Of a DNA stretch of 64,000 bases, positions 22,026 through 22,953 are shown in pieces. The notes beneath the pieces were generated by a model that searched no databases, had not been told where the DNA came from, and saw only the letters and a list, made by a program, of their open reading frames with translations. This stretch comes from Acidobacteriota bacterium (GTDB taxonomy: Bacteria; Acidobacteriota; Terriglobia; Terriglobales; Acidobacteriaceae): positions 62,001 through 126,000 of the forward strand of contig JABCZH010000001.1 of the NCBI GenBank assembly GCA_013289795.1, written 5' to 3'. How positions within the stretch are numbered: the stretch's first letter is position 1; every line of letters begins with the position of its first letter. Both the position numbers and the translations under genes were made by a program.

Positions 22026-22808
22026 CTAATTGGGGCCGGCCGAAGCTCGAAGTACGTAACGGCCGCGTCCCTTGAACTCGACCAGTCCTAAATCGCGTAG
22101 AATCTGCAGTTGCTGACGGATTTTCGGACGGATATTTCGATTATTGGGATGCACGATCCGTAGAGATGGCTCAGCATCGTATATCTCAGAGAGAGTAAAC
22201 TCGGCCTTTCTGAGCCTTCGTACGAAACTAAGAACATCGACCGTCCACCCTCGTAAAGATGGTGGCAGTTTGCCGAGGCCTCGTATCCGCTCGAACTCCT
22301 TACGTACACGCTGCTCCGGTGTCGGCCTTCCCTCTGAGATCATTGCAATCCTGCCATCCTCGGGAATACCACCTAGGAGAATATTGCACCCGATCCATCC
22401 GGCCCGACGTGCGGTCTTGCTCAGCGGTCGCCGCTTTTCGATTACGCTTTCGGTAACGAACATCCTAGGTATCAGCATCAGGTTCCGCACATGCCACGCG
22501 CCAGTGTATTGCAGCAAAAGCAGGTGGGGCGCGCGGTCCGCCTTTATTGCCCGAATCATAGCCTCATAACCGGCATCTACGATCTTCGGCGAACCCCACC
22601 TTCGCAAGCTCTTGAGTTGAAAGCGCTGTTCGCATCGTGGGCAGCTGAAGTCCGCCGCCTGCGTGTTCGCCGGTGACCTTGAGATGCTGCCTGACCTGCA
22701 GGCCGGGCAATACAGCTCCCTAGCGCACCAGTCTTCACTCAAAATACGCGCGACCTGCGAGGCTGATTTGTACGCAGAGGCAAGATCAATATTGCATTGC
22801 AGATTCAT
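22026..22808 (-). CDS. DpnI-family methyl-directed restriction endonuclease
   Basis: Aligns along its length with DpnI of Streptococcus pneumoniae, which cuts G-m6A-TC. Shared landmarks: YKSASQVARILSEDW, two CxxC pairs forming a zinc site (about 34-59), TARRAGWIGCNI, RGWTVDVL, and a C-terminal winged helix with IRQQLQILRDLGLVEFKGRG. Starting at the ATG at 22808 gives 260 residues and puts Asp53 and Lys66 exactly at DpnI active-site numbering; the frame is open further upstream to 22847. The catalytic Glu64 of DpnI is Gln64 here (CAA codon, motif FQLKS). The gene overlaps the preceding 55-codon gene by 23 bp. No Dam or DpnM methylase is nearby, as expected for an enzyme that cuts methylated DNA. 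Activity is uncertain because of the Glu-to-Gln change. Confidence 0.88.
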   Translation of the reverse strand: MNLQCNIDLASAYKSASQVARILSEDWCARELYCPACRSGSISRSPANTQAADFSCPRCEQRFQLKSLRRWGSPKIVDAGYEAMIRAIKADRAPHLLLLQYTGAWHVRNLMLIPRMFVTESVIEKRRPLSKTARRAGWIGCNILLGGIPEDGRIAMISEGRPTPEQRVRKEFERIRGLGKLPPSLRGWTVDVLSFVRRLRKAEFTLSEIYDAEPSLRIVHPNNRNIRPKIRQQLQILRDLGLVEFKGRGRYVLRASAGPN

Positions 22809-22953
22809 AACCTGGGATATTGATTTCATCGCTATGGTACGGCTCAATCTCCACGTGACACGCTTGACACTTGTCGTTGCAGGTGCATGACCAGATGTCT
22901 ACCCACTGTCTTCCGTCACGGGGGCAGCGATAGTGATTAACATAGATCGTCAT
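22786..22953 (-). CDS. Small Cys-rich protein upstream of the DpnI-like gene
   Basis: A 55-codon frame from the ATG at 22953 to TGA at 22786. The product has five Cys (one in YRCPRDG, then a CTC-x3-C-x2-C cluster), plus Trp-rich WVDIW and EIEPYHSDEI segments, which look like a small zinc ribbon. I recall similar unnamed small proteins in other bacteria but cannot name a family. It ends inside the DpnI-like gene, with the stop 23 bp past that gene's start, so translation is probably coupled. No strong ribosome site is seen. Confidence 0.6.
   Translation of the reverse strand: MTIYVNHYRCPRDGRQWVDIWSCTCNDKCQACHVEIEPYHSDEINIPGYESAMQY

What the first reader, a model, noticed from the sequence alone, without database searches (positions are those of the whole stretch)
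22026..22808. DpnI-like endonuclease with the catalytic Glu replaced by Gln
The protein shares with DpnI the whole fold landmarks and, with the ATG at 22808, lines up exactly at Asp53 and Lys66, the DpnI active-site numbers as I recall them. The Glu64 between them is Gln (CAA). PD-QXK variants of this nuclease superfamily are known, so the enzyme may still cut, or may have become a methyl-DNA binding protein. Either would be notable in Acidobacteriota.
Basis: partly seen in the sequence, partly recalled or inferred. Interest (0 to 1): 0.75.

Follow-up and report, generated by a model that had tools for sequence, protein, structure and literature searches.

The report
DpnI-family restriction enzyme with glutamine site
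This bacterial gene encodes a relative of the DNA-cutting enzyme DpnI in which one metal-holding glutamate is a glutamine; the glutamine is not a defect of this one gene but is found in about half of the relatives compared, so the enzyme probably still cuts methylated foreign DNA.

Summary
Window 22808..22026 (-) encodes a 260-aa, two-domain DpnI-family protein (PF06044 201.7 bits, PF17726 92.2 bits) that aligns with DpnI without gaps over residues 1-251: Asp53, Gln64, Lys66. The idea that a catalytic Glu was 'replaced' in this gene is misleading. Among 131 distinct family members position 64 is Glu in 67 and Gln in 64, and nothing else. On an 85-row tree built without that column, Glu and Gln exchange at least three times, and a single Glu group is rejected. 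Most DpnI residues that read G-m6A-T-C are about equally conserved in both forms. After DpnI, the nearest listed catalytic folds are Eco15I and NhoI, PD-QXK enzymes that cut methylated DNA and hold the metal with that Gln. The host shows no Dam-type or DpnA-like methylase. Most likely this is an active Gm6ATC-dependent restriction endonuclease with a common alternative active site; a cleavage-dead reader is less likely. Activity was not tested. I found no paper naming Gln64 in DpnI relatives (searches), but the 2012 DpnI structure paper was not held.

The parts
22026..22808 (-). DpnI-family gene, 260 aa: PD-QXK nuclease domain (about residues 1-180) plus C-terminal winged helix (about 183-254)
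   Evidence: AF2 model mean pLDDT 95.9, VIA Z 31.1 to 4esj_B
22650..22652 (-). Codon for Asp53, bridging metal ligand
   Evidence: position computed from ATG 22808; alignment to DpnI; role from PMC4117772
22617..22619 (-). Codon CAA for Gln64, equivalent of DpnI Glu64
   Evidence: position computed from ATG 22808
22611..22613 (-). Codon AAG for Lys66, catalytic lysine
   Evidence: position computed from ATG 22808
22386..22433 (-). Residues 126-141 with the m6A/G-reading residues Arg126, Leu129, Arg135, Trp138, Gly140
   Evidence: position computed from ATG 22808; conserved in Gln and Glu forms; roles from PMC4117772
22047..22262 (-). Winged-helix domain (DpnI_C), residues about 183-254, with helix motif KIRQQLQILRD
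   Evidence: columns 229, 231, 232, 234, 235 and 237 invariant in the 124 rows filled there

Best explanation
A stand-alone, methylation-dependent restriction endonuclease of the DpnI (Dam-replacing) family. Its winged helix and its nuclease domain each read fully methylated G-m6A-T-C, and the nuclease domain cuts within the site. The catalytic metal would be held by Asp53, by the side-chain oxygen of Gln64 instead of Glu64, and by the carbonyl of residue 65, with Lys66 activating the water, as in the PD-QXK enzymes of the Mrr, MspJI and BisI groups. It would protect a host that lacks GATC adenine methylation from phage or plasmid DNA carrying Dam-type methylation. Shown: domains, residue identities, family-wide Glu/Gln alternation, conserved reading residues, no recognisable Dam or DpnA-like gene in the host. 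Inferred: metal binding by Gln64, cutting, target and role.
For: Position 64 is only Glu (67) or Gln (64) in 131 distinct proteins, where the median column holds 10 residue types; a dead site should drift further. Lys66 131/131, Asp53 130/131 (one Glu), Cys56 131/131. The base- and methyl-reading residues Gln18, Asn48, Arg126, Leu129, Arg135, Trp138 and Gly140 are about equally conserved in Gln and Glu forms, as are winged-helix columns 229, 231, 232, 234, 235, 237. Three Glu/Gln exchanges are forced by supported branches, none of 200 bootstrap trees has only one, and one Glu group is rejected (p-AU 0.000252): lineages change one residue for the other while the rest of the active site stays. 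Among chains listed, the nearest catalytic-domain folds after DpnI are Eco15I (Z 10.2, 117 aligned, 2.9 A) and NhoI (Z 9.8, 127 aligned, 3.6 A); their QIK/QVK Gln coordinates the metal and they cut methylated DNA (PMC11347163 passages). The host has no PF02086 or Dam-family match and no DpnA-like methylase at E<=1e-15.
Against: No Gln-form DpnI relative with measured activity was found; the DpnI homologue whose activity I read about (gonococcal Drg) has Glu64 in the record I aligned, which is of another strain than the one assayed. Three PF01555 methylases of unknown specificity are in the host, so GATC methylation is not excluded. Some Gln-form loci sit beside an open DpnA-like methylase frame (L017, L043, L064), which would be a conflict if both act on GATC; the same pairing occurs beside Glu forms. 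Asp78 is less conserved in Gln forms (47 of 64 against 62 of 67) and Ser17 varies in both (44 of 64 and 51 of 67). Fold similarity at Z about 10 and 12% identity shows no function by itself.
Confidence: 0.75

Rival explanations
1. Cleavage-dead reader: Gln64 weakens metal binding so far that the protein only binds Gm6ATC and acts as a sensor or regulator.
For: A neutral ligand replaces an acidic one; some Gln forms lie beside open DpnA-like methylase frames and 3 of 40 Gln-form hosts have a Dam-family match over the cut-off.
Against: Lys66 and Asp53 stay fixed in the Gln forms. Methylase genes are not commoner in Gln hosts: Dam family over the cut-off 3 of 40 against 4 of 24 Glu hosts (p 0.41), at E<=0.001 8 of 40 against 8 of 24; DpnA-like at E<=1e-50 6 of 40 against 3 of 24, at E<=1e-15 9 of 40 against 9 of 24. 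Gln is a working ligand in NhoI and Eco15I.
Confidence: 0.12
2. Active nuclease with another target or methylation pattern, for instance hemimethylated or differently flanked GATC.
For: Columns near the site differ between the forms (87, 52, 79) and Asp78, whose backbone contacts the outer C, varies more in Gln forms.
Against: The side chains that contact bases and both methyl groups in DpnI (Ser17, Gln18, Asn48, Arg126, Leu129, Arg135, Trp138) are unchanged in the window protein.
Confidence: 0.1
3. Isolated mutation, sequencing error or decaying gene.
For: The nearest intact relative (60%) has Glu, and CAA/CAG and GAA/GAG are one base apart.
Against: 64 of 131 family members have Gln, encoded by CAA (37) and CAG (26) in the 63 others; the window frame is intact and the key residues are kept.
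Confidence: 0.03

Closest known systems
R.DpnI (Streptococcus pneumoniae; PDB 4esj, 4kyw; PF06044 + PF17726)
   Same: Same two domains, ungapped over 251 residues, same Asp53/Lys66, four Cys, base- and methyl-reading residues
   Different: Glu64 in DpnI, Gln64 here; Arg87 in DpnI, Ala87 here
Drg, the dam replacing gene product of Neisseria gonorrhoeae, active on GmeATC (PMC4269198 passages)
   Same: 35% identity over both domains
   Different: Glu64 (in the strain 2022NG-0032 record); lies in the leuS/dam locus beside a DpnIIB-like gene, whereas the window gene lies between frames that I read as clpB and mnmG (names recalled from the sequences, no family search run)
BisI family (NhoI, Eco15I): PD-QXK modification-dependent nucleases
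   Same: Nearest listed catalytic-domain folds after DpnI; Gln in the metal-binding position; modification-dependent
   Different: Read 5mC in GCNGC, act as dimers; 12% identity over the aligned part
Mrr and MspJI type PD-QXK enzymes
   Same: PD-QxK active site and modification dependence, as described in PMC12707154 passages
   Different: Other domain arrangement and targets; no comparison with them was run here

Membership tests
DpnI / Dam-replacing family (PF06044 + PF17726) | Match to the nuclease-domain model over the curated cut-off | tested here: met
   201.7 bits, cut-off 26.7
DpnI / Dam-replacing family (PF06044 + PF17726) | C-terminal DpnI_C winged helix | tested here: met
   92.2 bits, cut-off 23; fold match to 4esj over 1-254, Z 31.1
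DpnI / Dam-replacing family (PF06044 + PF17726) | Asp53 and Lys66 of the active site | tested here: met
DpnI / Dam-replacing family (PF06044 + PF17726) | Residues that contact the bases and methyl groups in DpnI (Ser17, Gln18, Asn48, Arg126, Leu129, Arg135, Trp138, with Gly140 behind Trp138) | tested here: met
   all identical in the window protein; roles from PMC4117772
DpnI / Dam-replacing family (PF06044 + PF17726) | Cleavage of Gm6ATC only when methylated | not testable with these tools
   needs purified protein
DpnI / Dam-replacing family (PF06044 + PF17726) | Host without GATC adenine methylation | tested here: inconclusive
   no PF02086, Dam-family or DpnA-like gene found, but three PF01555 methylases of unknown specificity
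PD-ExK active site in the strict form of DpnI | Acidic residue (Glu64) in the (D/E)XK position | tested here: not met
   Gln64 (CAA)
PD-QXK (Mrr-like) active-site group | Asp followed by Gln-x-Lys in the active-site positions | tested here: met
   D53 and Q64-L65-K66, the latter on strand 62-68 of the model
PD-QXK (Mrr-like) active-site group | Descent from the Mrr, MspJI or BisI families | tested here: inconclusive
   only fold similarity to NhoI/Eco15I (Z about 10, 12% identity); sequence places it in the DpnI family

The most novel reading that the evidence does not exclude
The DpnI family has two standing chemistries, PD-ELK and PD-QLK, exchanged repeatedly, and the Gln form is functionally distinct: a slower or more tightly controlled nuclease that can live beside its own GATC methylase (as in the open methylase-nuclease pairs of L017, L043, L064), with the Glu form often accompanied by an Arg at position 87 that tunes the acidic ligand.
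Probability: 0.12. Interest if true: 0.62.

Novelty: new variant of a known kind. Interest (0 to 1): 0.4.

Why it matters
DpnI is a standard laboratory enzyme and a model for reading m6A. A natural exchange of its metal ligand, about evenly split in the 131 proteins compared and repeated at least three times, gives many natural test cases (the window protein and its 60%-identical Glu relative L005 among them) for what Glu versus Gln does in a PD-(D/E)XK nuclease. It also warns annotators against calling Gln forms dead.

Tried and rejected
Rejected: sequencing error or isolated decay (Gln64 in 64 of 131 members). Tried without a clear result: (1) correlation of Gln/Glu with host Dam or DpnA-like genes gave no difference (an earlier Fisher test on DpnA-like counts used miscounted numbers and is replaced). 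(2) Column 87 is Arg/Lys in 54 of 63 Glu rows and 3 of 61 Gln rows, but only two or three independent contrasts on supported branches exist, so the sign test cannot reach significance; the Fisher p ignores relatedness and is not used. I could not measure the 64-87 distance, as no model coordinates were in the script folder. (3) Phage and plasmid collections gave one partial phage record and two gonococcal records; the viral scan gave four loci that match only the winged-helix part. (4) Distant PF06044 matches L012 and L193 carry Gln-Val-Lys, a hint that Gln is the older state, but L012 is a very long branch, L193 has a stop inside, and the distant L183 has Glu, so the direction is left open. 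(5) GATC in the window: 379 seen, 406 expected from trinucleotides, not informative. (6) GC of the gene, 55.2% against 58.1% for the window, is within the spread (11% of windows as low). (7) Synteny: 0 of 29 relatives' mnmG loci show DpnI, but only 30 of 54 matching genomes were fetched, the flank was 1.5 kb, and L221, L222 and L245 are cut by contig ends; clpB adjacency could not be judged. (8) Foldseek and VIA also list many unrelated winged-helix chains, and the restriction enzyme 3ndh at Z 8.1 and SPARDA chains at 7.9 for the nuclease part.

Rows dropped. (88 rows): 7 loci flagged partial or broken (L048, L064, L026, L020, L021, L105, L104), 7 duplicates, and loci below E 1e-8; the 87-row tree is this set without the window's own copy L001. 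(131 rows): 6 loci (L048, L026, L138, L020, L104, L106), duplicates, frames under 80 aa and matches above E 1e-6; L048 and L026, read in pieces, also have Gln64. (124 rows): 7 partial rows. (85 rows): also L011 and L037. The 80 loci are the best of 506 confirmed, ranked by similarity to a Gln query, so the Gln share among them is biased upward.

Full report
What is there. The frame 22808..22026 (-) encodes 260 aa with Pfam DpnI (201.7 bits) and DpnI_C (92.2 bits). The only solved relative at E<=0.01 by single-sequence search is DpnI itself (E 6.7e-67, residues 1-251, no gaps). Asp53, Lys66 and Cys 34, 37, 56, 59 are kept; position 64 is Gln (CAA). DpnI binds its site-1 metal through Asp53, Glu64 and the Leu65 carbonyl, with Lys66 catalytic (PMC4117772, passages). 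An AlphaFold2 model from 45 window and locus sequences has mean pLDDT 95.9; it matches DpnI 4esj_B at Z 31.1 over 240 residues, 2.1 A.

How common is Gln64. I searched PF06044 in genomes of five phyla, at E<=0.001: own phylum, 12 of 396, and the phyla of the genomes of L031, L036, L065 and L053, 10 of 245, 32 of 340, 14 of 337 and 11 of 345 (some of these matches are weak or below the family cut-off); a relatives search with the protein gave 10 of 61 genomes, the own one included; one genome-contig scan gave 80 loci kept of 506. From these I took 131 distinct proteins including the window's. Position 64 is Glu in 67, Gln in 64, never another residue. Codons of the 130 others: GAA 47, GAG 20, CAA 37, CAG 26. 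Lys66 131 of 131, Asp53 130 of 131, while the median column has 10 residue types. By source, after removal of duplicates, Glu/Gln: scan 38/36; own phylum 8/2; relatives 1/3; phylum of L031 (Nitrospirota) 0/4; of L036 (Thermoplasmatota) 4/14; of L065 (Verrucomicrobiota) 9/3; of L053 (Bacteroidota) 7/1 (phylum names by NCBI). The scan was ranked by similarity to a Gln query, so its share leans to Gln.

History. With column 64 left out, an 87-row tree needs three Glu/Gln changes, of which starred branches force two. With columns 64, 79 and 87 left out, a careful 85-row tree needs three, all forced by supported branches; none of 200 bootstrap trees has one; holding all Glu rows together costs 76 log units (p-AU 0.000252). 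Glu rows are the classical DpnI clade, an Acidobacteriota clade, and L005, which is sister to the window protein (97/88 support). A 124-row quick tree needs six, of which supported branches force two. The tree is unrooted, so which state is older is not shown.

What this says about function. The DpnI residues that read the site are Arg135, Asn48, Arg126, Ser17, Asp78 (backbone), Gln18 and the methyl cleft Leu129, Arg135, Trp138, backed by Gly140 (PMC4117772 sections 3, 15-18 and 21 read). All are present in the window protein. Across the family they are about as conserved in Gln as in Glu forms, except Asp78 (47 of 64 against 62 of 67), while Ser17 varies in both (44 of 64, 51 of 67). Glu25 of the N-terminal helix is also conserved in both (62 of 64, 62 of 67); in the BisI family a helix Glu comes near the metal, but its role here is not known to me. 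After DpnI the nearest listed catalytic-domain folds are Eco15I (Z 10.2) and NhoI (Z 9.8) (Foldseek E 0.0019 for NhoI); this was a second look at Foldseek's own matches, and such Z values are only somewhat above background. In those enzymes the motif is QIK/QVK, the Gln coordinates the metal, the authors call Gln and Asn equally suited as chelators, and all active-site alterations made in Eco15I abolished cutting (PMC11347163 passages). PMC12707154 (passages) describes PD-QxK sites in MspJI and Mrr and calls DpnI PD-ExK. I therefore think an active Gm6ATC-dependent nuclease is most likely.

Host and neighbours. The own genome (completeness 99.91) has one DpnI-family gene, no PF02086 match, no Dam-family match and no DpnA-like match at E<=1e-15, but three PF01555 methylases over the cut-off, one of them over the cut-off of PRK13699. 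I examined 64 of 90 listed host genomes, 40 Gln and 24 Glu. Dam family over the cut-off: 3 of 40 and 4 of 24; at E<=0.001, 8 of 40 and 8 of 24. DpnA-like at E<=1e-50: 6 of 40 and 3 of 24; at E<=1e-15, 9 of 40 and 9 of 24. None of these differs (Fisher p 0.25 to 1). The methylase of L043 is 56% identical over 233 aa to the second methylase of lactococcal plasmid pSRQ700, which lies between an adenine methylase and a restriction enzyme gene; I recall, from no call, that this plasmid's system and DpnA act on GATC. Relatives of that methylase stand directly before Gln-form genes in L017, L043, L064, after the Gln-form gene of L040 and after Glu-form genes in L060 and L093. In gonococcus an active Drg is followed by a DpnIIB-like gene and FA1090 GATC is unmethylated (PMC4269198 passages), so such a neighbour does not by itself mean conflict. 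PMC11037411 (passages, and sections 16 and 17 read) also reports methylases next to such nucleases, some frame-broken. The gene is patchy: 9 of 60 relatives besides the own genome have any match, three of these short or weak (L020-L022), and 0 of 29 other mnmG loci show it (with the limits told under Tried and rejected).

Novelty. In the library searches (listings and starts of abstracts, with passages of the papers cited) I saw no statement that DpnI relatives carry Gln64. The 2012 DpnI structure paper and the 2012 superfamily survey are not held, so it may be in print. PD-QXK itself is long known. I rate this a new variant of a known kind, of moderate interest.

Noticed in passing
window 22953..22786 (-): A 55-aa frame with paired Cys (zinc-ribbon look) overlaps the start of the DpnI gene by 23 nt; relatives (E 1e-6 to 1e-7) lie near DpnI genes in L008, L051, L067, L077, L090, all Glu forms. 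No Pfam match. No control for how common such frames are was run.
   Followed up: partly
L017:1-1344, L043:1793-3106, L064:3764-4978: Open DpnA-like methylase frames directly upstream, on the same strand, of Gln-form DpnI genes in Acidobacteriota; split in L034, remnant in L081.
   Followed up: partly
L002:1184-1486, L003 (minus strand), L073:4804-5001: Short N-terminal Dam remnants (66-101 aa) directly before Glu-form DpnI genes: dam replacement outside Neisseria, in Acidobacteriota and Flavobacterium.
   Followed up: partly
L068:4073-4996 and L079:3982-4995: Open Dam-family frames (308 and 338 aa) directly before Glu-form DpnI genes in Flavobacterium, an apparent conflict, with N-truncated DpnA-like frames after them.
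   Followed up: partly
DpnI-family column 87: Arg/Lys in 54 of 63 Glu rows, Ala/Ser in 51 of 61 Gln rows; too few independent changes to test.
   Followed up: partly
L031:386-2974 and L024:2-574: clpB lies within 5 kb of the DpnI-family gene in two other Gln-form loci, as in the window; may be chance.
   Followed up: no
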